DNA from: Pseudovirgaria hyperparasitica
Lineage: Eukaryota > Ascomycota > Dothideomycetes > Acrospermales > Acrospermaceae
Reading direction: 5' to 3'
DNA: 64,000 nt
Assembly (NCBI RefSeq): GCF_010093815.1
Contig: NW_022985566.1
Coordinates: 76,884-140,883, forward strand
Below, one piece after another: positions 11,004 to 37,289 of the stretch; position 1 is the stretch's first letter; every line of letters starts with the position of its first letter. The notes beneath the pieces were generated by a model that searched no databases, was not told the DNA's origin, and saw only the letters and a list, made by a program, of their open reading frames with translations. The translations under genes were made by a program, and so were the position numbers.

Positions 11004-11289
11004 GGTTTGGAAGATAATATCTGGATTGATGGTAGGTGGTAAAAATAGTAGTTAGTCAGGAATTGAATGTGGTCCACGTAAAAGAGTGGTGTGTTGCAAG
11101 ACTACCTGGGTCAAGTAGTCTTTATTTTCTGATCCCTTACTTATTGCGAGACACCAGTGTGTTCATTGTGTCGATACACATTGTGCAGGTTCCTAGTACA
11201 ATGAAAATCAGTAGGCCTAGGTGTCCTGACTACAAGATCATTCCTCGACGCAGAAAGTGTAGACGTAAGCATATACAATGTAAGAGTTA

Positions 11290-11720: not shown

Positions 11721-11737
11721 AGCTTGTCTCTAAAGTG

Positions 11738-13300
11738 TTACGCAAACGCCTTCTTTACTAGTAACCGACAATCTCTATCGGGATACTTCGGAGTAGTAAA
11801 TAACGTACTCTTTGTCTCCATGATTTTCGGCCGGCCTAATTCATCTAAGTTCTTTGGCCCATACACTGTGTCTTCTGGTAGCTTTACATCATAGTCTTTA
11901 AGAAGGTTAGATAAGATTACCATCATCTCCGACCATGCTAGGCTTTTCCCAATACAGTTGCGATGACCGTAAGAGAATGCAAAAACGTTTCTTTTAAGAT
12001 CTTCGTTCGCTAAAAAGCGTGTTGGGTCATATATATGCGGGTCCTTCCAAGTCTCGGCATGGTTATGTGCGCCGATCAGGTTGATAGCTACCTCAATGCC
12101 TGGTGGAAGATAGAAACCCTGGAGCATGACCCCACTCGTGTGAGATACCCGGGGCATGAATCCCGAGGTGATGGGTGAGTATCTCAAGGTTTCATATACG
12201 CATGCCTCGAGAAATGGCAGTTGGGTACGACACTCCGCGAATGTGACCATGTGGTCACGTTTAAACAGGCTTCGTACTTCATCCACGGCACGTGCGTGGT
12301 ACGCTGGGTATAAAGTCAGTAGATGAATCACCCAGGAAGTAACGAAAGAGGTCGACTCGCTTCCAGCAAGCTGTAATGCGATGCTTTCGGTGCGCACTTC
12401 ATGGCGCTGCATTTTGATTTTAGAATCTGGGTCTTCTGCGTCTAGAAATGCCTGGAGAAGGTCTATAGGTCTCTCCTTCGCGCCGTTCAGAAGCTTTCTA
12501 CGTCGAATGTCGATAGACTCGTTGGAATGTCGGATGAAAGCATGAAACTGGGATCTAGACCGACGAAGAAGGCGAGAGAAAGGCCAATGGCCGAGAAGTG
12601 GGAGGTTCTTCGTCATGCCAAGGTAAAAGCCTGTTGCCTCGATCCAGCGAATTATGGTATCATCGTCATTTGAAAGAGCGCTAAAGTCGCGCCCAAAGGC
12701 GAGGGCACCAATCGTATCGAATGTTGCGTATTGTGTATCATTTCGGTAATTCACAATGATGGGGTTGCCTTCGTTTTGATCGATTAACATGTCCCATTTA
12801 TCTCGGATGGCTTGGATACTATGCCGGACAATGAGCGGCTCCATCTGATTAAGAAAGCCATGAGTAAGATACGGGCCAAGCTGGCGACGGCGAAGGCTTG
12901 CATAGATGGGATCGCGAGCTGTGAAGATGCTTGGGTGACCGAGAATGTCGAGCATTCTGTAAACATCCGTCTTCCGGAAGTCTTGAGATGTCAAGATCTT
13001 CTTGATATCTTGCGGGTGACTGATGCTGACTCCATCTGGTCGATGGACGTAAATGTCTCCATATGTTTCGTAGTCATTCTGAACAGACTGAGATCCATTG
13101 CTGAAAATACGTTTGACTATAGAATGCTTCGCACTAAGGCGGGACAGGAAAGATCCTGGGATATTGCGCAATGGAGAGAAGAAACATTGATAGATAACTC
13201 TATAGGCGATGGCTACAGCGACGATATATGCGACGATGCAGGGAGGTTCGATTGCTTCTGGGAGGGAGAACAAGCCTTTTCGATCTACCATGGCGCTCAT
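11738..13300 (-). CDS. Cytochrome P450, fusidane-cluster (CYP5081-like) paralogue 1
   Basis: This single-exon gene encodes 520 residues from the ATG at 13300; a further in-frame extension begins only with TTG. An N-terminal membrane anchor ([20 protein letters not shown]) leads into [15 protein letters not shown]. The I-helix is [10 protein letters not shown], the ExxR is YETLRYSP, the PERF-region reads DPTRFL, and the haem loop is [10 protein letters not shown] with Cys ~449. All catalytic motifs are present, so the enzyme should be active in the ER membrane. The C terminus ([12 protein letters not shown]) is shared with the three other P450s here. It lies beside the dead helD1-like gene. 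By order it could correspond to helB3 (C-6/C-7 oxidation) or helB2 (C-16 hydroxylation), and I cannot decide which. Confidence 0.9.
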
Positions 13301-13886
13301 TCTGTGATTTCCAGTTTGCAAAAGTGAAATCCTTCAATGGCTGGGTAAGAACTTTTTTATCTCGCCAAATCAATAGTAGCTTAGATATCCCAAGTAGAGT
13401 AGGAGCAACCTTGTGTTCTTTATCATGTCGTTGCAAGTAAGGGATGCTTGTAACTTTAGGTACTTGCTAGGAGTAGAGAAACTCGGTGGCGTGAGTGACG
13501 AACGATTCGCGGTAAAAGTGTACCTTCATGCTCGTTGGAAACGTTCAGAGGTCCCGCCAATGTCACGGTCGATTAAAAAGGTGTGCTCATCCCTGGACAC
13601 ATTGTCTTCCGACTTCTGTGAGACAAAATGACGCATGACCTTGCATTAGTATTAAGCGCCATGATGGAAAGCTAGTAAGAGCACCATTAAGTATCACTAT
13701 ACTCGGGTAAATTTTGCGACGATACGGAAACGCTAAGAATCTTTCCCCGTCACTTCCCCCCGAGCTTGGATCTTCTAGCGCACAGTTGAAGTATATTACA
13801 GTGAGAGATAAAGGGTATGACAATCGAGCTAAGCGACCCAGATGAGACACAGCATCTAAGATAGACGCAGTCTTTGTTGACGGGAG
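13301..13886. promoter_or_regulatory. Upstream region of P450 paralogue 1
   Basis: This 586 bp stretch between the P450 start and the end of the acyltransferase pseudogene is the only available promoter space for the P450. Short ORFs on both strands look fortuitous. No defined factor site is claimed. Confidence 0.4.
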
Positions 13887-15344
13887 CTACCACACGAGCT
13901 CACCAACATTTTCCCAGAACGGATCTACCAACATTCCTTTCATAGCGGTAGGATTACTGCTCAGCAAAACGTTCACTCCGTCTGTTGATGGCATAGGCGG
14001 TAGGAATGCGACTATACTGAGACTGCTAGCAAAAAGTGGCGTCAGGCTCACACATGCTGGAGATCTGTAGCTAAAATCAGCATCGTAAAGCTTGAAATTG
14101 ACCTAACTTGTACACACAAGGAATGTCCTCATGCGACTAGCGGTCAATGCTAAGGGTCGTAGGTAGCTTGTTGGATGCGCAGATATAAGCTCAACGAACT
14201 CGGATACTAGCTGAGGGCTGACGCTGGACACTGTAGACTGCACCTGGGCTGCTGCATCTGCTAAGGTAGCTGCATTCGTAGGTCTTCTGAGATCATTGAC
14301 TTGATCTCTAATCAGTAGCCCAGTAAGACAATTTTCTGTATAATTCTCTTTGACATTCAGCCGGGATCTCAGGTCAAAAGGGACTCGTACTGATGCATGT
14401 TCCTCGACTTGAGGTGGGCCCCTAAGTCAAGTTCAGAATCTAGATTGTTGATTTGTTTTGAGCTGGTTCTGTATTGACAGCTTTCTGATAAGAGCAACTA
14501 GGATATCATTGTCACTGATATGAGATGTGCCGAAAATAAGGTGAGGCTGAAGCATTTGATGTAACTCGTTGAGCTTTCTCTGCGAAACATGGAACAGGTG
14601 TGCTTCGCCTTTGGCGAGCCCAGTGGTTTTACTCAGCATAGCACCCAGTGTCGTATGGGATAGCAACGTTGACCAGTCGATGATTACATTAGGAGTGGAA
14701 TATATGGCATGGCTCGTGGGATCGATCAATACTTGGCCGGATGTAGTTAGATACGAGCGGACTATGCTTCGATCGAAGGAGTATGTTCTGCGAATGGGTG
14801 GTACGGCACTGTGGACCATTCCGTACATTGTGTCGGCCCAGGAATTGACGAATACGAAGAAATTCGCATCATCGAAGGCATAATGGAGAACACTGATGAA
14901 CAGGACCAGGCCACTGTTCTCCTTGAGTCGAATGACATGAACATTGAGCATGTGGATCTCACTGTCACTAGCAGTAGTGGCAATGGGTCCGACTGTGACC
15001 ACGCTCGGGGGCCAGCTGCTTTACGCAAAGCCTGCGGTCTTGAGATCTGCAAAGTGAATCGTGAATTAAACAAACTCCAGGAACTCCGGATGGTTGATGT
15101 TATCAGGATCTAGTTCGATGAGTATGTTTCCAGTCACCTTATGACGCAAGTGGCCGAGTAGAATTGAAAAGGTCTCGAGGGTATTAGCCAGGGCTTTCTT
15201 CAGTTGCTCAGTCGGCATGAAGTCTGTCACACTTGAAGTGTTCTCAAAGACGTATGCGCAGGGGATAGTTGAGAACGAGCCTTGCATGTCCAGCGCCGAT
15301 AGGGGTCATGCTTGTGGCTTGATAGAGCTGATGTATTTCTTCAT
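13887..15344 (-). pseudogene. helD1: Acyltransferase pseudogene, helD1-like (BAHD/trichothecene-AT fold)
   Basis: One frame of 486 codons runs from an ATG at 15344 to a TAG at 13887 and aligns along its whole length with the intact acyltransferase at 25,782-27,206. It contains about six internal stop codons and no apparent length change. N-terminal SALDMQGS, the catalytic HxxxD (HYAFD), VPFDLRSRLNV and the C-terminal FWENVGELVW are all readable in the same frame. No combination of introns removes the stops, so the gene is taken as dead. In the helvolic-acid pathway HelD1 acylates the 6-hydroxyl. The D1 assignment rests on the other copy sitting in the D2 position next to helE. A longer-than-usual product made by stop read-through is very unlikely. 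Confidence 0.82.
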
Positions 15345-15993
15345 GTTGACGTTTACTAGTGTAGTCGAAAGTGTTGAATCGGGAATGCATTTGCGTCAGA
15401 TATTACGGCGCGTTTTGGGCTTTGAGTCGACGGCTCTCCCGTTATCACCCGATTAGTAGCAGATCCCGAGGACAGCCATGTTGTCCACAACGTAGGTCTC
15501 AGGCCAGAAATGTCTCAGCTCCTCATGCCGACAGAGTATGCCCAAGATCCCAGCAGAGCTAAGGACGACCCCGGATGGGGACAGCACTCTATATCAAGGA
15601 GTTAGTTCGTAGCGTCGTGAACAACATCATCGATAAGAGTAGTGCGAGGTTGATATTGCAGAAGGACGAAATTTGACGCTGAGGAAACAAGTGGAGTCAT
15701 GCGCTAAGATGACAAAGGGTAAGAGGTCTGTGCGTTCAATCAGACCCCCCCTCCTACCCTATTTTTCATTAACACCCCCTCCTCTATCTTGGGACGTATC
15801 TTACAGTGATCATACGCCTTATGTAACTACAACACGCTGTGTTTCAAATGAGCTCTTTCTGCAGTCTTGAATGTAAACTCGGACGCAGTCATGAAGCTAA
15901 CCGACATATACATCAGCATTGGATGACACTCCGAAAACAGCACTGGCGACAGTGTCACCCACCTCGAGAGACTCCTAGTCAACATCAAAGTCC
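15345..15993. other. Intergenic between helA stop and the helD1-like pseudogene
   Basis: This 649 bp stretch contains the former promoter of the pseudogene and the 3' end of helA. Small plus-strand ORFs here have no recognisable features. Confidence 0.4.
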
Positions 15994-18243
15994 TCACACA
16001 ATCTCCACATCACCATATCGTTTCACATACCGTCCTAGGGCCAAGAGAGTGAAATGAAACTTGTACAATGGATATCGCATGCCTCCTGGCGGGACAAAGA
16101 CTCCTTCTAGAGTGCCTGGTAGCCAATCACCCATTGGCTGTTGAGCGTCCATCAAAAATTTGATGCCTTTAGCTACAGCCTCTTGGTCGGCGCATCCTGC
16201 CGCCAGCAATGCTATTGTAGAATAAGCTGTACACGTGACCTGGCTCCCCAACGGCTCCTGGACGTATCTCTTAACCTTTGTGCTCTCGATAGACTCTCCC
16301 CAGCCGCCATCGTCATTTTGATGCTCCAGTAAGAATCTGCAGGCTTGTCTCGTTGCAGCACAATTCTCTTCGGATCTTCCAACGCAAGCAAGACCTTGCA
16401 GGGCGAACATAGTCGCGTATGTGAAACACACTCCCCAGCTAGCATACCACCCGCCTTCTGGATATTGTGCCCGTAGCAAGAAAGCGACACCGCGATCTAT
16501 ACACTGTTGTATGTCATGCGGCCGATATGATGGATAAGTCCGACTGAAAGCGGTCAGAGTCATGATGATCGAACTGGTACACTCTGGATATAACGTCTCG
16601 GTCATAACGTTGTCGTATATCTCGGTGACGTTGAAAAGCTCCATAAAGCTTGGAGCCCGAATGGGTTCATACGATGAGAATCCACCACCACGGTTTTCCA
16701 TGGCCATAATGAGGTCTACCGCCTCTTTTAAGCGGCTATCGGAAATGCGTCTGCGTACCACGCCTGATTCCTGGAGTTGCATAACCACCTTCACAGCTTC
16801 AGCGGTCGTATCAGATACTGCGTATCCTTGCTCGCGAGTGCTGAAACTCCAGGCTCCTTTTGTTGGTTGCCGATAAACATGGTCTATTGCCATTGGATCC
16901 TCGCGTATCTGAGAATTGTCTATGAACTCGAGAGCCTTCTCAAGAACAGCTTTGTTTTCGGGCTCCTTTGAAAGGTCACATTCGAGAACTGCCTGTACAG
17001 TCAAGACAGTGTCCCAAAGAGAAGTCCCGTTGGTTCCAGACGCTGACAGTCCTTCGCGGCACATCCACATGGGGTCTATGACGCGCGTCTGCATTCCTCT
17101 TACCCAATGGCTGCGAGGCCCATGAGCATGCCATAAAGATAACAGATTGGATGCGAAGCTAACCGGTGCAATGCTGAGATAGCTGGTGTTGTGGACTTCG
17201 GCTTCTATCTGAAAAAGCACCTCTTTTAGCGCTCTCCGCCGTATGAACGGGATCTTGTAGTGTTCAATCAGGCCTAAGATTCCAATTGCTGCTGAATGGA
17301 GTCGCGTCAAGGGCGCTAGACGATCATGAGAGCTTACATGCGTCCTCTGAGCGACCCAGTCCACGTTTTCATATGGTATCTCATGAATCTCCTGTCTTAG
17401 CTGTAGCACGAGCTCATTTTGTGGCATCACCCAGCGATGGCCATACATATATGCCAAACTGACATACATGTTGCGAGTATGAACCCACCAATTACCCGGA
17501 TTTAAGGGCAAAGCCTGAGGGACTAAGAGGACTTCTGCGACCAGTGGTATCATGCCATCCCATTCATACAGTCCGAGGACACACAACCACCACTTTCCAA
17601 AGGCAGGGATTGCTAATGCACCTCCCATAGTCTTTAGACAACTTCGAGCCTTTTCCAAGACAGGGTGAATTGCTGGTAGTCCCAAGATTCGCAGCATGAT
17701 ATAGCTCATAGTTGTTCCGAATACTGTCGAAGGACTTTGGATGAACAATCCCCATCCGCCATCGGCATTGACCATATTCAACAAGTACCGACACATCTCA
17801 GCCTTCATAAAGTCTTCCAATGGCAAGCCAATGATATACATGGTGATCACAATTCCACTGGTAACGAAGAGCGGCCCGTCATCATTGCATCCCCAATGGC
17901 CATCCGAAGTCTGGAGCCGTTTCAGAAACTCCCAGCCGTGCGCCAGAGCTTGCTTCGGTCGCTTCGATGTTTTCATTTTTGGCATTTCGATGGGGAGACC
18001 AAGCCAGTACCGTTCTAGGAAGCTCTGTGGCTGGGTCTCACATTCCTCTTTTGAGCTCAAGTAGTGCCACACATGCCTACCATGCTCTACCTTGAGTCTC
18101 CATTGATCAAGGTTTGTTGCGTAGGGTCGTGCCGCAGCGGTATTCTCAAATACAGTACTGCTACAGACCTTCTGTGCGACGCTTGTTTGAACGGGGGTTT
18201 TGATCCCAGTCACAAACGTCGAATCATCATGAGCTGTCTTCAT
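15994..18243 (-). CDS. helA: Oxidosqualene cyclase, protostadienol synthase type
   Basis: This intact single exon encodes 749 residues, the usual OSC length. The enzyme cyclises (3S)-2,3-oxidosqualene at the membrane. QW repeats are clear (DGHWGCN, DGGWGLF, GGGFSSYE, EGGWYASWG, DGGWGES). The catalytic acid motif is DTTAE at 478-482, equivalent to DCTAE of lanosterol synthase. Near the C terminus VPPGGMR (717-723) occupies the site where A. fumigatus protostadienol synthase has APPGGMR and lanosterol synthases have a SCAIS-type sequence; from memory of published mutagenesis, this segment decides protostane versus lanostane. The cyclase is therefore expected to make protosta-17(20),24-dien-3-ol, the first step to helvolic and fusidic acids. 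It sits among four P450s, an SDR and acyltransferases, as in known fusidane clusters. Confidence 0.93.
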   Translation of the reverse strand: MKTAHDDSTFVTGIKTPVQTSVAQKVCSSTVFENTAAARPYATNLDQWRLKVEHGRHVWHYLSSKEECETQPQSFLERYWLGLPIEMPKMKTSKRPKQALAHGWEFLKRLQTSDGHWGCNDDGPLFVTSGIVITMYIIGLPLEDFMKAEMCRYLLNMVNADGGWGLFIQSPSTVFGTTMSYIMLRILGLPAIHPVLEKARSCLKTMGGALAIPAFGKWWLCVLGLYEWDGMIPLVAEVLLVPQALPLNPGNWWVHTRNMYVSLAYMYGHRWVMPQNELVLQLRQEIHEIPYENVDWVAQRTHVSSHDRLAPLTRLHSAAIGILGLIEHYKIPFIRRRALKEVLFQIEAEVHNTSYLSIAPVSFASNLLSLWHAHGPRSHWVRGMQTRVIDPMWMCREGLSASGTNGTSLWDTVLTVQAVLECDLSKEPENKAVLEKALEFIDNSQIREDPMAIDHVYRQPTKGAWSFSTREQGYAVSDTTAEAVKVVMQLQESGVVRRRISDSRLKEAVDLIMAMENRGGGFSSYEPIRAPSFMELFNVTEIYDNVMTETLYPECTSSIIMTLTAFSRTYPSYRPHDIQQCIDRGVAFLLRAQYPEGGWYASWGVCFTYATMFALQGLACVGRSEENCAATRQACRFLLEHQNDDGGWGESIESTKVKRYVQEPLGSQVTCTAYSTIALLAAGCADQEAVAKGIKFLMDAQQPMGDWLPGTLEGVFVPPGGMRYPLYKFHFTLLALGRYVKRYGDVEIV

Positions 18244-18791
18244 CTTTGATCCTTGGAATAGATGTCGAATATTAGTCTCGTATATCGACCAAGCTTGAGA
18301 CTTCGAGTGTTTCTAGCGACGATTGGATGAAAGCACGAGGGGCTTCGGGTCGTCTAAATCATGAGTTACTCACGGGTCTGATATTTGAGGTTAAAATTTC
18401 TAGTATCATACAAATCGGCTCATTTGATGGTTTCGTTAATTACATATGAAACGTACCTGATCTTCCACAACGCTTTTAGATCAGAATGTTAGCTTGGAAT
18501 CAAGCCCGAACTCGACCGGACCCACAGCGACATGAATACCCTACGTCCGTCAAGGCCAAAGCGTTCCAGTCACTAACGTCTCGTACTACATGGATGGGGG
18601 CTAGTTGCGCTTATAGCCTTATCACAACGTCGATTGCTCGGCTGTATGCAAAATGAGGTTGCATGACGCTAATGCAGCACACGGCACAACAGAAAGAGGA
18701 CCTGAAAGTTACTAATTCTGCATTTCAACGACTAGGATACGAATGTAATACATGCCAATTCACTACCATGTTGATGTCTTCTTGCCGCTAC
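18244..18791. promoter_or_regulatory. helA upstream region
   Basis: This 548 bp between the helA start and the stop of the next P450, both on the minus strand, must hold the helA promoter. No gene is seen, and no specific motif is claimed. Confidence 0.4.
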
Positions 18792-20450
18792 TCACTCATC
18801 GTTGACACGATCCTTCCGCTTTTGCAATATCATCCGACAGTCTCTCTCCGGCTTCGCAGGCATTGTCGCTACCCCCAGCTTCGTCGGCATGATTCTCGGT
18901 CGTCCTGTCCTAGGATCTTTGTTATGCGGGCCGAAGACACTGTCCTTCGGCAACTTGATATCGTAATCGCGGAAAAGATTCGCTATTGTGACCATCATTA
19001 CGACCCACGCGAGGTTCCGCCCAATGCAGAATCTCGTACCATAAGCGAAAGAAAGCATGTTGCGCTTCGTCTCGAAGTTGTTCAAAAACCGGGTTGGGTC
19101 GAATTTGTCTGGATCCTGCCACGTAGTGGCGTGTACGTGAGCTGCGCATTTGTTGGTTGCTATCTCGGTCCCAGGCGGGATATAGAATCCCTTGATGGTG
19201 ATACCCTTGGTATCTGAAACTCTTGGAAACGAAGTGCTTGTGGTCGGAATACAGCGGAGGGTCTCATAAATGACACACTCCAGATACGGTAACAGTTCCC
19301 TGCATTGCTGGTATGTGATGACGGTCTTCATGTCGGGAAAGCCAGCGCGGACTTCGTCACGGACGCGGTCGAAATGCTCGGGGTAAAGCAACAGAAAGTG
19401 TATGATCCACGAAATGACAGAAGAAGTTGACTCACTGCCACCAACAAGCATTGCAATACTTTCAGCCTGAACTTCTTCTGGTGACATATGTGTCTTGCCT
19501 GGAACGTCGAGATCTCTTGCATCCAGCAAGGCCTGAAGCAAATCAGCAGGTATGTCGCCTCCATTATGAATCTCTTCTTGGCGAATCGCCACGGACTCCT
19601 TGCTGAACTGTACGAGGTCGTCGTACGAGCCCTTCAGCTTCCATACTAGAGCTGAAAATGGCTTTCGTTTGATGAATGGAAAGTAATGAGAAAGTAGCAT
19701 GTAAGTAAGAGTGTTGTTCACCCATTTGGTGTAGACTAGGTTGTCCTCCTGTAAGGCGTGAAAGTCTCTCCCGAAGGCCAGAGCTCCGGTAATGTCGAAC
19801 ATGGCCAGTTGTGTATCAGAACGATAGTTGATAATAGTATCCTCGCCGCGGACTTCGTTGTTTGTAATCAGGGTGTCCCATCTGGTTCGTAACGCTTTGC
19901 TCCCATATTTCAATATCAGATGTTCCATGCCCGCTAGATAGCTAACCGTGAAAAAGGGATGCAACTGGCTTCTTCTCTGATTAGCCTGTGCGGGATCTGT
20001 GAACGTGCTGACATTGGGAATCCCCTCATATTCGAACACCCGATACATGTCCGTCTTCCGGAACTCCGTGTTTGACAGGACTACCCGCGCGTCCTTTGGA
20101 TCGCAGATAGAGACAGTATTCGGTTTTGACAGATACACATCACCGTGCTGTTTGTAATCCGATATTGATGCTGCTTCAGCCCGACCGGTGAGCAAGTGTA
20201 TCATTATACGGCTGCTTGTCACTCGAGCGAGAAATGGAGCTGGGATATGTCGAAGTGGGGAGCGAAAAAATGCATAATAGAGCGTCCAGACAGTTTGAAC
20301 TGCGAATAGGATCAAGGTGATGCGTGTGTATCCCAGGCTGACGACATATGACTTTATTTCCAGGAGAACTTCGACTAGAAGATATTGCCGTATCCTACCA
20401 TCTGAGGGGACCAAGTTTTCAGAAGCAAGTATATGGTCCATTGTAGACAT
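18792..20450 (-). CDS. helB1: Cytochrome P450, fusidane-cluster paralogue 2 (helB1 by position)
   Basis: An intact 552-residue single exon. The N-terminal anchor (ITLILFAVQTVWTLYYAFF) runs into RSPLRHIPAPFLARV. The I-helix is LVGGSESTS, ExxR is YETLRCIP, and the haem loop is FAYGTRFCIG with Cys ~475. The C terminus PERDCRMILQK matches its paralogues. It directly follows helA in the same orientation. In A. fumigatus helB1 (a CYP5081 enzyme) lies next to helA and oxidises the C-4 methyl to a carboxyl group before HelC-dependent decarboxylation. The symbol rests on that neighbourhood only. It is ~30 residues longer than the other paralogues, mainly at the N terminus and the C-terminal tail. Confidence 0.88.
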   Translation of the reverse strand: MSTMDHILASENLVPSDGRIRQYLLVEVLLEIKSYVVSLGYTRITLILFAVQTVWTLYYAFFRSPLRHIPAPFLARVTSSRIMIHLLTGRAEAASISDYKQHGDVYLSKPNTVSICDPKDARVVLSNTEFRKTDMYRVFEYEGIPNVSTFTDPAQANQRRSQLHPFFTVSYLAGMEHLILKYGSKALRTRWDTLITNNEVRGEDTIINYRSDTQLAMFDITGALAFGRDFHALQEDNLVYTKWVNNTLTYMLLSHYFPFIKRKPFSALVWKLKGSYDDLVQFSKESVAIRQEEIHNGGDIPADLLQALLDARDLDVPGKTHMSPEEVQAESIAMLVGGSESTSSVISWIIHFLLLYPEHFDRVRDEVRAGFPDMKTVITYQQCRELLPYLECVIYETLRCIPTTSTSFPRVSDTKGITIKGFYIPPGTEIATNKCAAHVHATTWQDPDKFDPTRFLNNFETKRNMLSFAYGTRFCIGRNLAWVVMMVTIANLFRDYDIKLPKDSVFGPHNKDPRTGRPRIMPTKLGVATMPAKPERDCRMILQKRKDRVNDE

Positions 20451-21159: not shown

Positions 21160-21978
21160 ATGCCAGAGTCAATATCTCCAGCATTTACCAGGCGAATAGC
21201 CATAGTCACTGGGGCAGCCCGTGGAGTCGGCTTCGCAATCAGCAAAGCTCTCGCATTGAAAGGCTACCTAGTCGTCATCAGCGATATCGATAGCATTGAA
21301 GGTACTCACGCGACAAAGAGCCTCAATGAAACAATGGGCGCCGGTACTGCTGTATTCATTCATTGTGACCTGGCTCGACTTTCTTCCATCGATAAGCTCC
21401 TTGAGTCGACTGTCCAGCAACTTGGGAGCTACAGTCTGCTTGTCAATAACGCTGGCTATCTACGAGCGCCTTTCCTCGCACTGTCGGCAGAGCATATGGA
21501 GCAGAGCATATCGGTGAATTTAACTGCACCACTATACGCGTTGCAGCGTGCCGTTATGTACTGGAACGCGCATCCTCATATCGAGGCTCCTGCCGTCGTT
21601 ACAGTGACATCGTCCTCATCATTCAAGACCTATGCGTCCATTCTCCCATACGGCGCTGCAAAAGCTGGCGCTGCACAGTTTACATTTGCCAGTAGGGACT
21701 TTGGGCCAAGGATCAGAGTCACAGCTGTGGCCCCGACGGCCATCGCGACCGGATTTGAGCTGGGAAATATGAGGATTGCTACGGAGCAAGAAGGTCCTGG
21801 GTACACACCGGAAGATGCGATGAGAGCCATGGGATTGGAACGATTGAGTCCAGAGGACGTGGCCAATGAAGTCGTGAGATGTGCAGAGGATAAGGATATT
21901 TGGGGAATTGTTGTGCATCTAGATAAGGCGAAAGGTGCGAAGATTTTCGGGGGGTATGAGGATTTCATGGGCGTGTGA
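21160..21978 (+). CDS. helC: Short-chain dehydrogenase/reductase, helC-like
   Basis: A single exon of 272 residues, classical SDR length. The NAD(P)-binding TGAARGVG lies at 17-24, followed by acidic SDIDS at the end of beta2, which favours NAD+ over NADP+. NNAG is at 96-99. The catalytic Ser group is SSSSFKTY and YGAAK is at 164-168, so Ser, Tyr and Lys are all present. No membrane segment is seen, so it is probably soluble or peripheral. In the helvolic-acid pathway HelC oxidises the 3-hydroxyl and promotes loss of the C-4 carboxyl made by HelB1, an alternative to the ERG25/26/27 route. It is divergent from the helB1-like gene, which fits that pairing, and its stop codon is only ~54 bp from that of the next, convergent P450. 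Confidence 0.9.
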   Translation: MPESISPAFTRRIAIVTGAARGVGFAISKALALKGYLVVISDIDSIEGTHATKSLNETMGAGTAVFIHCDLARLSSIDKLLESTVQQLGSYSLLVNNAGYLRAPFLALSAEHMEQSISVNLTAPLYALQRAVMYWNAHPHIEAPAVVTVTSSSSFKTYASILPYGAAKAGAAQFTFASRDFGPRIRVTAVAPTAIATGFELGNMRIATEQEGPGYTPEDAMRAMGLERLSPEDVANEVVRCAEDKDIWGIVVHLDKAKGAKIFGGYEDFMGV

Positions 21979-22031
21979 ATATGTTATTGTAGAGCACTGA
22001 TAGAATTACGAGACGTCTTAAGTATCTTTTT

Positions 22032-23609
22032 TCATATACACTGGCGCTTTCTTATAAGTATACGGCAGTCTCTCTCCGGATACTTAGGAGCAAAAACAAT
22101 ATGACACTTTGACGGCATTAACGCAGGCTCCCCATTATCTCTCCTCCCGTGCGGGCGAAAAGCTTCACTACCGTTCCCAATTCCTTCCATATCAAATTCG
22201 TTTAGTAGGTTAGCAAGGATTGGCAATATTTCCATCCATGCAAGATTCCTCCCCAAGCAGTTCCTTACTCCATATGAAAATGCAAAGACATATCTCTTCT
22301 TATCTGTGTCTTCTAGAAATCGTTCTGGTCGAAACTTGTTGGGTTCAGCCCAAACATCAGTTCGATTGTTTAAAGCAATCAGATTAAAGGCAATATGCGT
22401 TCCCGCCGGAACGAGGTACCCTTGCAATACGACGTCTGTAGACGCAAACTGAGGCATAAACCCTGATGTTATCGGAGTGTAGCGAAACATCTCATATATG
22501 AAGGCCTCGAGAAATTCAAGAACTCGACATTCAGTGTAACTGATTAAATGGCCCTTGGCGAATCGCGAGCGTACTTCTGTCTCAGCACGCGCTCGATAGT
22601 GAGGGTATAGTGTGAACAGATGTAGTGCCCATGTCAGTGCCGCAGCGGTAGTCTCGCTTCCGGCGAGCTGCATGCCGAGGCTCTCAGCTTGGACTTCTTT
22701 GGCGGTCATAACGATTTTCGACTCCGGGTCTTGCGCTTTGATGAATGCCTGCAGCATGTCTTCTGGGACCTGTAATGCTTCGGCTTGATGCTTCTCAGGC
22801 GAGACTTGTTTATCGAGGAGTTGCTTCCGCCGTTTGACACTCTCTGCGGAGTATGCAAGAAAGTCCGCGTAGGCTGTCAGCGACGGACGAAGAAGGATAG
22901 AAAGGGGAAATTTAAGTAGCAGTGGAAAATTCATCCGTAGACCGACATATACTGCAGTTGATGAAATCCACCCAATGATGCGTGAGTCAGCAGACTCTAG
23001 GCTATCATCTCCTGTAGATCTTCCAAACGCCAGTGTAGCCATGATCGAGAAAGTCGCGAGTTGAGTATCGTTACGGTAGTTCACAACCGCGGTATCCCTT
23101 CCATCTAGGAGACTGTGCCACTTCGATCCAATGGCTTTGGCGCCTTTTTGAAGAATAATTGACTCCATCCGGAGTAGGTAGCTACTAGTGAAATATGGGG
23201 CAAGTTGACGACGACGACGACTTGCCATTGCTGGGTCACTGAAAGTAACGATGTTTGCTAGAGCCGGGTCGTGGACACCGTGATACATATCGATTTTGCG
23301 GAAAATAGACGAGCCTAGTACTGTGCGCACATCTTGCGGGTTGCATATTGTGATCGTATTAGGCTTGGAAATATATATATCTCCATAGGTGTTAAAGTCG
23401 TGAAGAGCGGCATCGATCACTCGGGATGGAAGTCGCTGATATATTGCTCGAAGCGGTGTGAGTCGTGCTAGGAGTGGGCCTGGGATGTTCCGCAGACTTG
23501 AGAACAGCGTCACGTATAAAACGTAGTAGCTAGACAACATGCAGACCCCAAGACCGAACGCCACCAAGGAGTCGGTCTGGTAGATTTTCAGAAATACAGT
23601 CTGGAGCAT
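22032..23609 (-). CDS. Cytochrome P450, fusidane-cluster paralogue 3
   Basis: An intact 525-residue single exon. The anchor VAFGLGVCMLSSYYVLYVTL is followed by FSSLRNIPGPLLARL. The I-helix is LAGSETTAAALTW, ExxR is YEMFRYTP, the PERF motif is RPERFL, and the haem loop is FSYGVRNCLG with Cys ~451. The C terminus is YPERDCRILIRK. It shares PITSGFMP after ExxR with paralogue 1, suggesting those two are the closest pair. Position next to the SDR fits either helB2 (C-16 hydroxylation) or helB3 (C-6/C-7 oxidation). It is convergent with the SDR and divergent from paralogue 4. Confidence 0.9.
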   Translation of the reverse strand: MLQTVFLKIYQTDSLVAFGLGVCMLSSYYVLYVTLFSSLRNIPGPLLARLTPLRAIYQRLPSRVIDAALHDFNTYGDIYISKPNTITICNPQDVRTVLGSSIFRKIDMYHGVHDPALANIVTFSDPAMASRRRRQLAPYFTSSYLLRMESIILQKGAKAIGSKWHSLLDGRDTAVVNYRNDTQLATFSIMATLAFGRSTGDDSLESADSRIIGWISSTAVYVGLRMNFPLLLKFPLSILLRPSLTAYADFLAYSAESVKRRKQLLDKQVSPEKHQAEALQVPEDMLQAFIKAQDPESKIVMTAKEVQAESLGMQLAGSETTAAALTWALHLFTLYPHYRARAETEVRSRFAKGHLISYTECRVLEFLEAFIYEMFRYTPITSGFMPQFASTDVVLQGYLVPAGTHIAFNLIALNNRTDVWAEPNKFRPERFLEDTDKKRYVFAFSYGVRNCLGRNLAWMEILPILANLLNEFDMEGIGNGSEAFRPHGRRDNGEPALMPSKCHIVFAPKYPERDCRILIRKRQCI

Positions 23610-24200
23610 GTCTCAGGGGTCGGCCGCTGATTCGTGATAATGTGGACGAGTGCAAAGTATTCGGAAAGAATGTCACTCCATCGAATGGAAGGACCATCAG
23701 GTCACCGATGTACTGATATGCAATGACATTTGATTAGATAAGATAGAAATTATACGAGGTCCGACCCGCGGATCGTCATGCCAGAACAGTGCGATGGGAT
23801 GATAACGCGACCTCGGAAGACTGCTACGGATAAGTGCTCAAGTGGGGCCATCCATCCCGCATCCGCTGAATCCGCCCTAACCTAGGGAGGGGATGGGCCG
23901 CAATGCCAAGCGGCATTAGTGTACAATCTATGGATACACGCACCTCCATGGGTGTTGGTCGCGCGCTAACAAAGACGCAACACGGGGTATTAGGCAAACA
24001 ATGGTATCCGTTCGACCGTGTTGGCGAAGGACCACGGCTGACTCAAAGATATGACTCAGATCAAGTGGTCGCAGACAATTCCCAACATTAGGCGTGAACA
24101 AAATTATGTCTATCCATTAGCTGACTCCGGCTTGATCCCACCATCGACACATCATTGCATCACCTGTGGTGTCCATTATTAGCTATTCTTCAGGATTACT
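23610..24200. promoter_or_regulatory. Divergent promoter between P450 paralogues 3 and 4
   Basis: 591 bp between two divergent P450 start codons, with several GC-rich CCGC/CGG-containing stretches near 23,760-23,880. A Zn2Cys6-type site is possible but not demonstrated. No gene is seen. Confidence 0.4.
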
Positions 24201-25724
24201 ATGTGGCAATACACTCTATCCGGTTTTGTTATCTTCTTCATATTCACAATCTACCGGTTGATTTACGCTTTGTACTTTTCCCCTCTACGCACCATCCCCG
24301 GCCCTCTAATCGCCCGAGTCACCTCAAAGCGCGGCAAGATTGATCAGTTTTCTGGCAACGTATCCGTACGAGCTATACTCGATGAGCAGAAATATGGGGA
24401 GGTGTACGTTTACAAACCCAATGCTGTCTGCATCAACCATCCGGAAGACATCAAATCTGTGCTCGGTTCTCAAGATTTTTTGAAGACCGGCTTCTTCGAC
24501 ATCTTTAACGACGGTTGTGTTCGAAATGTTGTCTCGATGCGTGATCCTATCCTCTCGAGTCAGCGGAGACGACAGATTGGACCTTATTTCAACTTCTGGC
24601 AGCTGGCGAAGATGGAAGATCTCATTCTACGACACGGGTACAAAGCGCTAAAGACCAAATGGGACGGCCTGATGGAGATGAATGCGTCTGGACAGACTGA
24701 AGTCAACTATCGTATTGACACCCAGCTTGTTACTTTCGATATCATGTCTGCCGTTGCATTCGGACGAGATTTCGGATCCATTCGAAAAGGCAGCTCCTCT
24801 GTTCTGAAGTGGGCCGGTGTCATTATGTCTCTACTCGACTCTTCCTTTGTTCTGGCATTGCTCTCTTTATTGCCATTCTCACTCGTTATGAGGCCTTGGA
24901 AAACAATGTACCACGAACTCGCAGTCTACAGTGATGAGTGTATACAAGACCGCAAATCACTGCTTGTTATCAAGGATAACAAGAAGCCCATGGATATGCT
25001 TCAAGCTTTTATTGACGCCGAAGATCCTGAGTCCCGAGCAAAGATGACACCACTTGAGGTTCAAGCCGAAAGTATCATGATGATGCTCGCAGGCTCGGAG
25101 ACAACAAGCAGCGCAATAATGTGGACGTTCCATCTGCTACTGCTTCACCCTTTTATATTAGCCACTGCAGTGCGCGAGATCCGCACCACATTTCCTAGTG
25201 CTCGACCATACACCATTACCTTCAAAGATGTGCAGATAAAGCTTCCATACACCGAGGCTTGTATCTATGAGGCATTGCGTCACTCACCTACTACTGCTGG
25301 GCTGACGCCTCGGATATCGTATACACGATCCATAACATTGCATAGTGGGCATATCATACCACCAAATACTGAGATATATGTGAATTTACGGTCGCCTAAC
25401 ATGCATGAGACTTTATGGTCGGAACCTCAAAGGTTTAATCCAGATCGATTTCTCGAAACAGACTCAAAGAAGAGTTTATTTACGTTCTCGTACGGACCAC
25501 GGAATTGTATCGGGAAGAACTTGGCATGGGTCGAGATGCTGACGATCATTGCGAATGTATTGAAAGATTATGACATCTTCCTGCCGGATGGTAATATGTT
25601 TGGACCACACAATGTAGACGAAAATGGATTTCCGAGGCTTCTACCGGCCAAATGCTTCATTGCGAGTTTCCCGTCTAACCCAGAGAGAGATTGCAAGATG
25701 ATTGTACGAAAACATTGCGAGTGA
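24201..25724 (+). CDS. helB4: Cytochrome P450, fusidane-cluster paralogue 4 (helB4 by position)
   Basis: An intact 507-residue single exon starting MWQYTLSGFVIFFIFTIYRL, a typical ER anchor, then FSPLRTIPGPLIARV. The I-helix is LAGSETTSSAIMW, ExxR is YEALRHSP, and the PERF region is NPDRFL. The haem loop is FSYGPRNCIG with Cys ~436. The C terminus NPERDCKMIVRK matches the other three. The order P450 - acyltransferase - delta1-dehydrogenase matches helB4-helD2-helE of A. fumigatus. There HelB4 oxidises the side-chain C-21 methyl to the carboxyl group that defines helvolic and fusidic acids. The symbol is by synteny only. The stop codon lies ~57 bp from that of the convergent acyltransferase. 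Confidence 0.88.
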   Translation: MWQYTLSGFVIFFIFTIYRLIYALYFSPLRTIPGPLIARVTSKRGKIDQFSGNVSVRAILDEQKYGEVYVYKPNAVCINHPEDIKSVLGSQDFLKTGFFDIFNDGCVRNVVSMRDPILSSQRRRQIGPYFNFWQLAKMEDLILRHGYKALKTKWDGLMEMNASGQTEVNYRIDTQLVTFDIMSAVAFGRDFGSIRKGSSSVLKWAGVIMSLLDSSFVLALLSLLPFSLVMRPWKTMYHELAVYSDECIQDRKSLLVIKDNKKPMDMLQAFIDAEDPESRAKMTPLEVQAESIMMMLAGSETTSSAIMWTFHLLLLHPFILATAVREIRTTFPSARPYTITFKDVQIKLPYTEACIYEALRHSPTTAGLTPRISYTRSITLHSGHIIPPNTEIYVNLRSPNMHETLWSEPQRFNPDRFLETDSKKSLFTFSYGPRNCIGKNLAWVEMLTIIANVLKDYDIFLPDGNMFGPHNVDENGFPRLLPAKCFIASFPSNPERDCKMIVRKHCE

Positions 25725-25781
25725 GGACGGTCTCGAAGAAATAGTGCTGTTATTGGTCGAAGGAACGTAGTAGTCTATATC

Positions 25782-27206
25782 TCAATACACTAATTCGATA
25801 CATTCACTGAAGTCACTATTCCCTAAAAGCTGCTGCATTACCCACGGACGTAAAGTCAAAAACACATCAATATCGCCGTTTGCTTCTGGTCGGCTCGGCA
25901 TGATAACGGCGACTGTGTTGCTATACGCCATTGGTGCTATAAATTCTGGCCTACCATTCCCGAAGTCTGTATCGTAATAGCCAAGGCGTGTTTGGTTGCT
26001 GAAAGCTTGACAAACCATTGATGCGTACAAAACGTTTGCCCGGTGACCAAGAAGCGTGATTACACGCAATGCTCGTTTCAAAAAGGTCTCTATGCTCGCC
26101 TGTGACACCTCTGTCACAGTATTCCGAGAGATGAGTGCCACCTCTGCGATAGGTTGTACCGCTTTAGCGGAGATCGGGAGGCGGAGAAGAGACGTTGGCG
26201 CAGTGACGTATAATCCAATCGCACAACTCCCAGAGTATCTCTCTGGGACCTTTAGGCGGTGTCGAAAGTCGCAAGGCACGATTGCTGACAAGGACTCGGG
26301 CGGTGAAGACTTAACACTAGGGGGGTAAGAGCTCTGGAAGAAAGCCATTGTGAACAGGGAGACAATCACGTCATTGGAAGACACCTTCGTGCCGAGCGAT
26401 AAAGTAGCGGCTTCATGCTGTACACCCTCAATGAAGGATCGTTTGACTCGGAAGAGATGGCTCTCTAACACGGCAGCCGAGTCCTGTTTCTTCGAAAATA
26501 GAACGAAAACTTCGAGTAAGCAGCGAAGCAAGAGTGACAGCCCTGCTACCATGTATGTCATAAGGTTCCATGGTTCTCTGGCAGGCGGTTGTAGGTCGGC
26601 TCGAAGCCTCTCGTACATGAAGCGTCGACTTAGCAACGGTAGGTGGTAGCGTCGCGGGTCATGCGATGGAAGCCGTTTTGAACACTCATTTGCCCAGTCC
26701 TGATAAAACTGGTCACAGCCTTTTGCGTCAAATACGCAATGTGCAATGCGAATTCTAATGACAACGCCACTGTTTTCCGCCAGGCGTACAATGAGGACTT
26801 CTAAAAGCTTCGAGTACGATGCGATGGTGGTTCCTGATGAGTTGACACGAGGATCCTGGACATTGATGCCATTGGGCCAGGAATCACGATGGAATGAGGC
26901 TTCGCGGATCTCACAGAACTTGGTGGAGCTACCAGTTTCCTCAAATGATGGCAAGTTCAGGTCAGATGGGTCAACAATGATGCTTATTGATGTCCCACTG
27001 CGCATGGCTCGCCCAACAAGAATTGGAAATCTCCAAAGTGAGGCGTAGAGAGAAGCCTCCAGCCGCAGTCTAGGCATGAAGTCTATGTTTGATGCATCAT
27101 TATTTGCATAGAAAAAGACATTGGAAATGTAGAGGTGACTTGGAATGATATCCAGAGGTGAAAGCTCATACTTTGCTGGCTCGAGGTAGTTCAAAGTGGA
27201 ATCCAT
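25782..27206 (-). CDS. helD2: Acyltransferase, helD2-like
   Basis: An intact single exon of 474 residues from the ATG at 27206 (MDSTLNYLEP); the in-frame codons upstream start only at TTG. It is a BAHD-like/transferase-family (PF02458-type) enzyme. The catalytic HxxxD is HCVFD at 156-160, preceded by RLAENSGVVIRIRI. The second family motif is represented by DTDFGNGRPEF near the C terminus, in place of DFGWG. It is expected to transfer acetyl from acetyl-CoA. In the helvolic-acid pathway HelD2 acetylates the 16-hydroxyl. It is the only intact acyltransferase of the cluster and the guide for reading the pseudogene at 13.9-15.3 kb. Confidence 0.87.
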   Translation of the reverse strand: MDSTLNYLEPAKYELSPLDIIPSHLYISNVFFYANNDASNIDFMPRLRLEASLYASLWRFPILVGRAMRSGTSISIIVDPSDLNLPSFEETGSSTKFCEIREASFHRDSWPNGINVQDPRVNSSGTTIASYSKLLEVLIVRLAENSGVVIRIRIAHCVFDAKGCDQFYQDWANECSKRLPSHDPRRYHLPLLSRRFMYERLRADLQPPAREPWNLMTYMVAGLSLLLRCLLEVFVLFSKKQDSAAVLESHLFRVKRSFIEGVQHEAATLSLGTKVSSNDVIVSLFTMAFFQSSYPPSVKSSPPESLSAIVPCDFRHRLKVPERYSGSCAIGLYVTAPTSLLRLPISAKAVQPIAEVALISRNTVTEVSQASIETFLKRALRVITLLGHRANVLYASMVCQAFSNQTRLGYYDTDFGNGRPEFIAPMAYSNTVAVIMPSRPEANGDIDVFLTLRPWVMQQLLGNSDFSECIELVY

Positions 27207-27784
27207 CCTTGCTTTCGAGTTAAAGAAGCCCAAGCCGTGTGTTTTCCGTACTCAAACTTCCAGTGTCTGGATATAGAAGTACGCAGAGGGATTCATCGGC
27301 ACCGAACTTAACTTCTGAGTTATGATCATTATTAGTCAATGAAACGGGCTTTGGTAATGAAAAACACTATATACCATCTAGTCTGTGTGTGACAGACAGC
27401 CTGCTTCATGAAAAGGACCGACCTTATAGAACAAGTGGTGTCAGCAGCGAGGCTCGCGCGGACTCTACTAGAGACGCGTGTGAATACCAGCGCTAATGCA
27501 AGGGTCTCGTATGGATTCGATATAGCCCAGGTGTCTAGCCCTTAGGGCCTCAGGCGGTTCCCCTGCAGTGTAAAGGTCACAGCGTATCACACTCCTGGGT
27601 GCGATCGCGTTTACTATACAGCATCGGTCTGCAGCCAGGAGCAAAGCCGTCATTCGGCTGATACGGCTGGAGTATGTTATACAACAAGCATGCGTCTAAT
27701 ATGCAGTCACATCAATTCTTAACAAGGAGCGAGATCCCGAATTCGAAGGACATACCACTTTCACCCAGCAAGGCAGTCGGACCG
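27207..27784. promoter_or_regulatory. Region between the helD2-like gene and the helE-like relic
   Basis: This 578 bp stretch holds the promoters of two divergent genes, one now dead. No ORF of note and no repeat is recognised. Confidence 0.35.
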
Positions 27785-29495
27785 ATGTCTATTCTCCACC
27801 AGACGAAAGACTACGCACACCGACGTTGATAAAGAGGTCGACGTTCTTATCATCGGGAGTGGGGCAACAGGCCTTACGGCAGCGTTACGATGTAATAATG
27901 AGCGTGGACTAGATACAATGGTCGCATAAAAAATGTCCAAGATTGGAGGGACAACTACATACCCTGGTGGTGAGCTTTGGGTCCCAAACAACCATCCTCG
28001 CCAAGCTGCCAGAGTCGTTAATTCTTACGAAAATGCGTTTCAGTATCTGGAAGCCATCATCGATGATGTTGGACCTACATCCTCTTGTACAAGGAAGGAG
28101 GCATTCTTAAAGGCAGGACCTACTATGGTTGGAAGCCATCGGGTTCAAATGAAACCTTTCACTTGGCAGTTCAGACTCTTATCCAGACAAGCCAGGAGCC
28201 CTTGTCATTGAGCGAGCTATTGAGCCAAAGATATTCGACGAGAAGAAACTGGGTGTCTGGAGGAAACGCCCGAATAGGCCCCCTGGAAGAGCAAGACCGC
28301 CTCTCTATACAAGTGAAGGCAGCAAGGCACTTCTCTCCGTGGCAACATGGGGTGGTAATTTCCAACTACTTCGCATAATAGCAAGATGGATCGGGCGAAA
28401 GTTGCTCGGTCAGAACCAGTCACTATGGGCTTGAGTCTAATCGCACAGCTGCTAGTCATTAGTATCCGGCGTGTCATTAGTCTAAGAACAGGAATGGCGT
28501 TGGTTAGACTTCTCAGGAATTCTAACACCAACACCTCAGACGGTGCAGTGCTAGAGCAGTCTGGTAGAGAGCTGATTATACGCACAAGGAAGAGTGTAAT
28601 ACTTGCTGTAGGTGGCTTTGCGTACAACAAAGACATGCGTGCCACATACCAGCCGTTTTTCCAAGCGTCGAATGAACGTCCGTCCCTAAGAGCGATACAG
28701 GTGACGCTATAAGAGCGGGAATGAACATTGGCGGGGCACTCGCACTTATGGATGAAGCTTGGTGGGACCAACAATGATCGATCCAGCCAGCGGCCTACGG
28801 GTTTTTCATCTTGTTTGGAAGAGCCAGGCCGCATTTAATCATCGTCGACTCGAGCGTCGAGCGTTTCATGAACGAAGCACAAAGCTATATTTACGCTGGT
28901 CACGAGTGATACAGACGGCATAGAGAATGTGGCAACAAGGTGAAAGCTATCCCTGTTTGGATAATCGTCGACTCGCAATTCATAAGAGAAGTACCCCTTA
29001 GGACGATTGATGGCAGGTTCGTCCTTAAAGAGGGCTATCGACACGGGTTTTCTTTTTGAAGGGAGGACTATCTTAGAACTAGCACAAATTGTTGGTGTGA
29101 ACGTCCCAGGACTCAATGCGACCATTCTACGGTTCAACCAGATGGCGCGACATGGGAAAGACCTAGACCATAATCGAGGCGGTAATGCTTATGACCGACA
29201 GTTTGGAGATCCGCTCTGCAAGCCAATTCCCAACCTGGGCACGATCGAGAGTGCACCATTTTTTGCGCTCAAGATCTTTCCTGGTGATCTAGGCACGAAA
29301 GGCGGTCTGTTAACGAACGGACATGGCCAAGTTCTTAACGAAAATGGCGACAAGATCTAAGGACTTTACGCTGCGGGCAATTCCTCTTCTTCTGTCATTG
29401 GTAGGACTTATGCGGGCGTAGCCTCAACTCTCGCACTGGCTATGACATTTGCTTTCCTGGCAGCCGAGCACATGTCTGGCGCTAATCAGGCTTAA
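27785..29495 (+). pseudogene. helE: 3-ketosteroid-delta1-dehydrogenase pseudogene, helE-like
   Basis: Translated pieces in more than one frame match FAD-dependent 3-ketosteroid dehydrogenases (KstD) in the correct order. They include the Rossmann start VDVLIIGSGATGLTAAL at about 27,830, KIGGTTTYPGGELWVPNN, FDEKKLGVWRKR, SVILAVGGFAYNKDMR, FNQMARHGKD, and the closing FAD-binding [19 protein letters not shown] at about 29,360-29,420. The spanned length (~1.7 kb, ~570 codons) equals a full gene of the family. Both internal stops and frame changes interrupt it, and I could not place introns that explain them. HelE normally adds the C1-C2 double bond of ring A as a late step. The position after the helD2-like gene is as in A. 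fumigatus. Confidence 0.85.
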
Positions 29496-29559
29496 GATGT
29501 AGAAAGCAGAAGTATGCTGTAGTTCTAGCCATGGAGAGTCTAACGCGACTATTGCCCAT

Positions 29560-37260: not shown

Positions 37261-37289
37261 TATAAGAGATAACATTTTCTTTACTAAAC

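What the first reader, a model, noticed from the sequence alone, without database searches (positions are those of the whole stretch)
11738..29495. A helvolic-acid-type fusidane cluster with two dead tailoring genes
The window holds homologues of all nine helvolic-acid genes: one OSC, four P450s sharing a P-E/D-R-D-C-R/K C terminus, an SDR, two acyltransferases and a KstD. The acyltransferase in the D1 role and the KstD (helE) are pseudogenes, while the scaffold and oxidation genes are intact. The gene content is seen directly. Pathway roles come from the published A. fumigatus hel cluster.
Basis: partly seen in the sequence, partly recalled or inferred. Interest (0 to 1): 0.85.

Follow-up and report, generated by a model that had tools for sequence, protein, structure and literature searches.

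The report
Helvolic-acid-type cluster, two dead genes
A fungus keeps seven working-looking genes for a steroid-like antibiotic of the helvolic acid family while the genes for two late finishing steps have broken, so it probably makes a less decorated and possibly stronger version of the antibiotic.

Summary
Window 11738-29495 carries homologues of all nine hel genes, in an order rearranged relative to A. fumigatus. Seven are open: OSC (A), P450s B1-B4 (each in its own hel clade), SDR (C) and one acyltransferase. The acyltransferase beside B4 has six in-frame stops and no frameshift; the KstD has about four frame changes plus stops. The genome is Pseudovirgaria hyperparasitica. By conserved neighbours (B4-D1, D2-E) the dead acyltransferase is D1 and the live one D2; no D1/D2 orthologues could be fetched to confirm this. 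At D1's stop rate about 60 stops would be expected in the seven open genes; none is seen, so they look maintained. The surviving set equals the published A. oryzae strain AO17, which stops at compound 17 (free 6-OH, no C1=C2 bond), more active on S. aureus than helvolic acid. Best reading: a pseudogene-made chemotype ending at a 6-hydroxy fusidane. Caveats: an intact unclustered KstD on contig C6 could still supply the helE step; the window's genes, B2 above all, are rather diverged for their clades; nothing shows expression or product. Truncated hel-type clusters are known: a new variant of a known kind.

The parts
11738..13300 (-). helB4-type P450 (520 aa, open; C-21 oxidation in A. fumigatus)
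   Evidence: 70% to A. lucknowensis helB4, 62% to M. canis helB4; in the B4 clade; keeps 205 of 210 clade-invariant residues
13893..15344 (-). acyltransferase remnant in the helD1 position; dead: six premature in-frame stops, no frameshift, start and terminal stop in place
   Evidence: PF02458 58.5 bits across the stops; next to B4 as in the A. fumigatus order
15994..18243 (-). helA-type oxidosqualene cyclase (749 aa, open), protostadienol-synthase group, VPPGGMR and DTTAE motifs
   Evidence: 219 of 231 invariant residues kept
18792..20450 (-). helB3-type P450 (552 aa, open; C-6/C-7 oxidation)
   Evidence: 63% to A. novofumigatus helB3; B3 clade; 175 of 186 invariant residues kept
21160..21978 (+). 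helC-type short-chain dehydrogenase/reductase (272 aa, open)
   Evidence: PF00106; NCBIfam SDR models, all below their cut-offs in the 25 shown; orthology to HelC inferred from position only
22032..23609 (-). helB2-type P450 (525 aa, open; C-16 hydroxylation), most diverged member of its clade
   Evidence: 58% to A. lucknowensis helB2, 56% to A. fumigatus helB2; branch 1.05; 161 of 172 invariant residues kept
24201..25724 (+). helB1-type P450 (507 aa, open; C-4 methyl oxidation)
   Evidence: 68% to A. lucknowensis helB1; B1 clade; 186 of 193 invariant residues kept
25782..27206 (-). open acyltransferase (474 aa) in the helD2 position (C-16 O-acetylation), HxxxD and DFGxG present
   Evidence: PF02458; next to helE as in the A. 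fumigatus order; 27-29% to the D1 remnant
27777..29495 (+). helE (3-ketosteroid-delta1-dehydrogenase) remnant; dead: about four frame changes and at least four in-frame stops; the conserved YPGAGG block near the C terminus reads YAGVAS
   Evidence: P0244, named 'helvolic acid biosynthesis 3-ketosteroid Delta1-dehydrogenase', is the best blastp match of 4 of 6 pieces; comparison block

Best explanation
This is a helvolic-acid-type (hel) fusidane cluster of Pseudovirgaria hyperparasitica that has been cut down to seven genes. HelA makes protostadienol. B1 and C remove the 4-beta methyl group. B2 and D2 put an acetoxy group on C-16. B4 makes the C-21 carboxylate. B3 oxidises C-6/C-7. Two late steps, 6-O-acetylation (D1) and C1-C2 dehydrogenation (E), have been lost by pseudogenisation. 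The pathway therefore most likely ends at a free-6-hydroxy fusidane equal or close to compound 17 of Lv et al. 2017. Shown here: gene content, placement of A and B1-B4, the lesions, and absence of stops in the other seven genes. Inferred: D1/D2 and C identity, enzyme activities, expression and product.
For: One-to-one placement of the four P450s in the B1-B4 clades. OSC grouped with HelA and apart from lanosterol synthases (SH-aLRT 100), with the GGMR motif shared by 22 of 44 aligned rows, all HelA-like (motif reported for protostadienol synthase in PMC8227516). Dead D1 and E; live acyltransferase in the D2 neighbourhood. Stop-gain bookkeeping: six stops in D1 and none in the seven other genes; D1 holds 9% of the stop-gain opportunity, P about 5.5e-7; about 60 stops expected in the seven if rates were equal, 3.5-15.9 per gene. 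In A. oryzae exactly these seven genes (strain AO17) gave compound 17 and its 3-keto-reduced form 18; no C-6 acetylation is reported there although D2 is present; MIC on S. aureus 1 (17), 16 (its 6-acetate 20), 2 ug/mL (helvolic acid) (PMC5696383).
Against: No expression or metabolite data. D1/D2 identity is from synteny only. An intact KstD exists elsewhere in the genome. The window's genes break clade-invariant residues more often than the median orthologue in four of five genes tested (A 5.2 v 1.7%, B1 3.6 v 0.8%, B2 6.4 v 2.0%, B4 2.4 v 1.9%; B3 5.9 v 6.1%); B2 is the worst of 28, and B2 and B4 have the lowest mean identity of their clades: either long isolation or weaker constraint. Seven other loci over the cut-off match PF02458, so another acyltransferase could act on C-6. 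B3 relatives include one from Hapsidospora chrysogenum (P0177), recalled to be the cephalosporin P1 producer Acremonium chrysogenum, so the exact C-6/C-7 outcome is not fixed by sequence. In the tree the OSC is sister to a clade that lacks the GGMR motif (0 of 11 rows).
Confidence: 0.55

Rival explanations
1. The whole cluster is decaying. D1 and E are simply the first casualties, B2 is next, and no fusidane is made.
For: Two of nine genes dead; B2 on a long branch (1.05); above-median loss of clade-invariant residues in A, B1, B2 and B4; no expression data.
Against: No stop in seven genes where about 60 would be expected at D1's rate; 94-98% of clade-invariant residues still kept in A and B1-B4; residue insertions and deletions private to the window are few (0-10 residues per gene; most of its clade only in B1, with 4).
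Confidence: 0.23
2. The helE step is backed up: the intact KstD on contig C6 supplies C1-C2 dehydrogenation, so the product is the 1,2-unsaturated 6-hydroxy compound (Lv's 22).
For: Full-length KstD-like frame with FAD motif and YPGAGG block, 53-54% to the remnant's largest C-terminal piece; sister to P0244 (97/94), the protein that best matches 4 of 6 remnant pieces. In Lv et al. HelE acted on compound 14, before D1.
Against: Outside the cluster; of six neighbouring frames scanned none matches P450, OSC or PF02458; outside the clade of the cluster-linked KstDs of Xylariaceae sp. FL0594, Poronia, Emericellopsis and Claviceps; an unclustered KstD also occurs in S. brachiariae, which lacks the cluster (PMC6819638).
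Confidence: 0.12
3. The dead acyltransferase is the D2 orthologue and the live one is D1, so the pathway stalls after C-16 hydroxylation.
For: No HelD1/HelD2 sequence was available; the two are only 27-29% identical; S. oryzae keeps a single acyltransferase said to be 69% homologous to HelD1 (PMC6819638).
Against: Live one next to helE and dead one next to helB4, both as in A. fumigatus; B4 and B3 act after D2 and would have lost their substrates, yet have no stops.
Confidence: 0.06
4. D1 is not dead: its stops are recoded by readthrough or mRNA editing.
For: Complete frame from start to terminal stop with six stops but no frameshift; codon periodicity as strong as in the open genes; PF02458 score at least that of the open acyltransferase (58.5 v 55.2 bits).
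Against: All three stop codons occur, so one rule would have to cover them all (recalled: fungal A-to-I editing favours TAG, which is one of six here); the DFGxG motif of the open enzyme is not kept.
Confidence: 0.02
5. Assembly or sequencing error broke the two genes.
For: Single genome, no reads available.
Against: Six stops in one gene and about four frame changes plus at least four stops in the other, seven neighbours clean.
Confidence: 0.02

Closest known systems
A. fumigatus hel cluster (helA-B1-B2-C-B3-D1-B4-D2-E), PMC5696383
   Same: Homologues of all nine genes; B1-B4 one to one; B4-D1 and D2-E neighbours kept
   Different: Order rearranged (B4-D1-A-B3-C-B2-B1-D2-E); D1 and E are pseudogenes
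A. oryzae strain AO17 (engineered, seven hel genes), PMC5696383
   Same: Same gene set as the open genes here
   Different: Engineered in the laboratory; here it arose naturally by gene death, and the product is not known
Cordyceps farinosa truncated hel-like cluster, PMC8227516
   Same: hel cluster reduced to seven genes; product predicted to be simpler than helvolic acid
   Different: There a P450 and an acyltransferase (genes 5 and 6) are deleted and a ketosteroid dehydrogenase of low similarity to HelE (26%) is present; here B3 is open, and D1 and helE remain as pseudogenes
Sarocladium oryzae eight-gene cluster, PMC6819638
   Same: One acyltransferase fewer than A. fumigatus
   Different: The one kept is said to be HelD1-like; the species makes helvolic acid (PMC8037696)
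Fusarium trichothecene chemotypes with pseudo-TRI7 and pseudo-TRI13, PMC6357111
   Same: Pseudogenes of late tailoring genes inside a living cluster set the end product
   Different: Unrelated chemistry; there the chemotypes are known from chemistry

Membership tests
helvolic acid (hel) cluster | Protostadienol-synthase-type OSC | tested here: met
   63-65% to HelA-type OSCs; separated from lanosterol synthases; VPPGGMR motif. Product not tested
helvolic acid (hel) cluster | Four P450s, one each of B1, B2, B3, B4 | tested here: met
   Tree of 83 rows and blastp to named hel P450s
helvolic acid (hel) cluster | SDR HelC | tested here: inconclusive
   SDR domain and position only; HelC sequence not fetched
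helvolic acid (hel) cluster | Acyltransferase HelD2 | tested here: inconclusive
   Open PF02458 protein beside helE; orthology by synteny
helvolic acid (hel) cluster | Functional acyltransferase HelD1 | tested here: not met
   Remnant with six in-frame stops
helvolic acid (hel) cluster | Functional clustered KstD HelE | tested here: not met
   Remnant with frame changes and stops; an intact KstD lies elsewhere
helvolic acid (hel) cluster | Makes helvolic acid | not testable with these tools
   Needs LC-MS
cephalosporin P1 / fusidic acid clusters | A second SDR (CepC2; FusC1; named in PMC8902786) beside the HelC homologue | tested here: inconclusive
   One SDR frame among those scanned between 11.7 and 29.5 kb; the rest of the genome was not searched for it

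The most novel reading that the evidence does not exclude
Loss of D1 and helE was favoured: stopping at the free 6-hydroxy fusidane gives a stronger antibiotic (compound 17 MIC 1 against 16 ug/mL for its 6-acetate), so the two dead genes define a derived, selected chemotype in a hyperparasitic fungus, the natural counterpart of an engineered seven-gene strain.
Probability: 0.25. Interest if true: 0.65.

Novelty: new variant of a known kind. Interest (0 to 1): 0.48.

Why it matters
It would be a natural case in which late steps of a known antibiotic pathway were removed by gene death while the rest is maintained, at a point where published chemistry says the shortened product is the more active one. 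That makes a direct test possible of why the C-6 acetylation step exists, and adds a triterpenoid example to the trichothecene case of chemotypes made by pseudogenes. It also points to a Dothideomycete as a possible source of 6-hydroxy fusidanes.

Tried and rejected
RIP as the cause of the lesions: rejected. TpA/ApT is 0.60-0.81 in the nine genes against 1.69 in the 57-64 kb tail. Introns as an explanation of the D1 stops: four of the six stops lie where the remnant aligns to the open acyltransferase with gaps of at most three residues nearby; the intron-like candidates found cover only two of the six stops and would shift the frame or remove a conserved block. Introns for helE: the homologues' residues continue across the frame changes. 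Mobile repeats bounding the cluster: the two AT-rich islets found no second copy in the genome (that search skips very common words). Bacterial promoter scan: uninformative for a fungus.

D1 having fewer frameshifts than expected: by hand, 0 frameshifts with 6 stops in D1 against about 4 with about 5 in helE is not a significant contrast (one-sided Fisher about 0.09).

Error of mine: the row 'own_C15_OSC' was translated on the wrong strand and is meaningless; one search repeats the work on the right strand. The other rows and the indel counts are not affected; the tree is not used.

Rows left out before counting: one search listed the best 120 of 177 P450 hits; the tree used 83 rows (4 window proteins, all 77 of P0124-P0200, and 2 of the 40 rows P0201-P0240; P0121-P0123 are the window's own). 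One search used 32 of the OSCs P0002-P0034 (partial P0031 left out) and the P450 clades. One search's indel counts used fewer rows (A 28, B1 12, B2 25, B3 5, B4 20). One search used 68 of the 120 listed KstDs (of 1039 hits) plus the C6 gene. Protein searches were capped at three and spent on the OSC, the P450s and the C6 KstD, so HelC, D1 and D2 orthologues were not fetched.
Full report
What is there. The 11738-29495 stretch holds nine hel-type genes in the order B4(-) D1-remnant(-) A(-) B3(-) C(+) B2(-) B1(+) D2(-) E-remnant(+). Seven are single open frames of plausible full length. In the whole genome (35.0 Mb, 59 contigs) the OSC search found one other OSC, on C15, which groups with lanosterol synthases.

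Whose genome. The intact KstD on contig C6 is identical over 555 of 556 aligned residues to a protein named from Pseudovirgaria hyperparasitica (P0241), whose contig length, 1,681,641, is exactly that of C6. NCBI taxonomy places the species in Dothideomycetes, Acrospermales. That it is a hyperparasite of rust fungi is recalled and only hinted at by its name. Eleven papers in the library name Pseudovirgaria; I saw passages of four, which mention it for swainsonine clusters (two papers), a leaf metatranscriptome and taxonomy. None of the passages seen mentions a fusidane cluster in it.

Which gene is which. blastp to named hel proteins gives clear best partners: 11738 = B4 (70% A. lucknowensis), 18792 = B3 (63% A. 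novofumigatus), 22032 = B2 (58% A. lucknowensis, 56% A. fumigatus), 24183 = B1 (68% A. lucknowensis); matches to the other classes are 38-49%. A quick tree of 83 P450s puts each in its own clade, all four at 100 SH-aLRT. The OSC is 65% to A. lucknowensis helA and 63% to an A. fumigatus OSC (P0004) that I take to be HelA. In a 44-row quick tree it is separated from lanosterol synthases at 100, and it carries VPPGGMR where these two have APPGGMR; 22 of 44 rows have GGMR, none of them among the lanosterol-type rows. C. [quoted passage not shown] Against this, the window OSC sits as sister (96 SH-aLRT) to a clade of 11 rows none of which has GGMR (8 have TPPCGYR), so its exact product is likely but not proven.

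The two dead genes. The D1 remnant runs from a start codon to a terminal stop in one frame of 483 codons, interrupted by six stops, with no frameshift; it aligns with the whole of the open acyltransferase. The KstD remnant is resolved in frames 3-1-3-2-3 by two of six intact KstDs and 3-2-3 by the other four, and its frame-1 block is matched separately by blastp; at least four stops lie in the frames used. The YPGAGG block near the C terminus, seen in the C6 gene and in the solved KstD 7p18 (YPGPGV in 4c3x), reads YAGVAS in the remnant. The roles of D1 (6-O-acetylation) and E (C1-C2 dehydrogenation) are those of Lv et al. 2017 (PMC5696383; Introduction, part 1 of Results and Discussion read).

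D1 or D2. The A. fumigatus genes are listed as A-B1-B2-C-B3-D1-B4-D2-E with consecutive accession numbers. Two neighbourhoods survive here: dead acyltransferase beside B4, live one beside E. This makes the dead one D1.

Is the rest alive. Counting single-base routes to a stop codon, the D1 remnant holds 9% of all such routes in D1 plus the seven open genes. All six stops lie in D1 (P about 5.5e-7), and at an equal rate about 60 would be expected in the seven (3.5 to 15.9 per gene). The genes were called intact because they have no stops, so the right use of this is gene by gene: even the smallest, C, would escape by chance with a probability of only about 0.02-0.03 (by hand). The P450s and OSC keep 94-98% of residues that are invariant in their clades (A 219 of 231, B1 186 of 193, B2 161 of 172, B3 175 of 186, B4 205 of 210). 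On the other side, the share broken is above the clade median in A, B1, B2 and B4, and the window's mean identity is the lowest of its clade in B2 and B4 and second lowest in B1. B2 is the weak spot: longest P450 branch of its clade (1.05), most broken invariant residues and lowest mean identity of 28 sequences, though its heme, ExxR and I-helix motifs are present (motif names recalled). C and D2 could not be tested in this way.

What it should make. Lv et al. put the same seven genes (A, B1, C, B2, D2, B4, B3) into A. oryzae as strain AO17 and obtained compound 17, with a free 6-hydroxyl and C-7 ketone, and its 3-keto-reduced form 18; no C-6 acetate is reported there although D2 was present. 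Compound 17 had MIC 1 ug/mL on S. aureus against 16 for its 6-acetate (20) and 2 for helvolic acid; compound 22, made with helE but without helD1, had 0.5. An independent study of S. oryzae metabolites found helvolinic acid (6-hydroxy) at 1 against 8 for helvolic acid (PMC8037696, passages). So the predicted end product is by these data more active than helvolic acid whether or not the C6 KstD steps in.

The C6 KstD. It is a full-length KstD-like frame at C6:590042-591946. In PDB and NCBIfam comparisons its best matches are 3-ketosteroid-delta1-dehydrogenases, the NCBIfam ones below their curated cut-offs. Six neighbouring frames hold a glycosyltransferase, a HAD hydrolase, a cupin, an FMN oxidoreductase, a weak MFS match and one without a match, and a hydrolase-like frame lies beside it (by eye). 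In the tree it pairs with P0244 (97/94) and lies outside the clade of cluster-linked KstDs from Xylariaceae sp. FL0594, Poronia, Emericellopsis and Claviceps. These I call cluster-linked because they share contig lengths (and, for Claviceps, neighbouring locus numbers) with hel OSC/P450 hits. P0244 is also the best match of four of six helE remnant pieces, so the C6 gene may be a fairly close paralogue. Whether it accepts fusidanes is unknown.

Comparison with known systems. Reduced hel-type clusters are in print: C. farinosa lacks the fifth and sixth hel genes (PMC8227516, section 3.4 read) and S. oryzae lacks one acyltransferase (PMC6819638, passages). Fusidic acid and cephalosporin P1 pathways branch from the common intermediate 69 of the review PMC8902786 (passages). 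Pseudogenes of late tailoring genes setting a chemotype are known from TRI7/TRI13 in Fusarium (PMC6357111, passages). A search for papers with 'helvolic acid', 'pseudogene' and 'gene cluster' gave six; I saw passages of two, whose only uses of 'pseudogene' are a reference title and a general remark; the other four I know from the listing alone. The combination found here, D1 and E dead with seven genes kept, I did not see described in the listings or in the passages read.

Noticed in passing
G000:C6:590042-591946 (L015:1342-3246, -): Intact KstD-like gene outside the cluster, annotated in P. hyperparasitica; possible backup for the dead helE.
   Followed up: partly
22032-23609: HelB2-type P450 is the fastest-evolving member of its clade (branch 1.05) although open and with its motifs kept.
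   Followed up: partly
11000-11730 and 29500-30300: AT-rich islets (33% and 32% GC) sit just outside both ends of the cluster; the right one has 73-nt inverted-repeat arms (88%) and a 15-nt tandem repeat; no second copy found.
   Followed up: partly
57000-64000: Strong RIP-like signature (TpA/ApT 1.69, substrate index 0.18), 35% GC; probably decayed repeats.
   Followed up: no
13893-15344: D1 remnant keeps its frame and a PF02458 score at least as high as the open acyltransferase's despite six stops.
   Followed up: partly
31385-49813: To the right lie an FAD_binding_4 oxidase, a sulfotransferase-like frame, a tyrosinase, a methyltransferase, a sugar transporter and an AMP-binding enzyme; possibly another metabolic cluster.
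   Followed up: no
31028-31043: A run of 16 G bases (read).
   Followed up: no
OSC tree: The window OSC is sister to a clade of 11 fungal OSCs, 8 of which carry TPPCGYR in place of the GGMR motif; their product is unknown to me.
   Followed up: partly
P0017, P0128-P0130 (Calcarisporiella thermophila): Hel-type OSC and B4, B1 and B3 P450s in a fungus that I recall to be outside Ascomycota; its P450s branch first in the B1, B3 and B4 clades as drawn.
   Followed up: no
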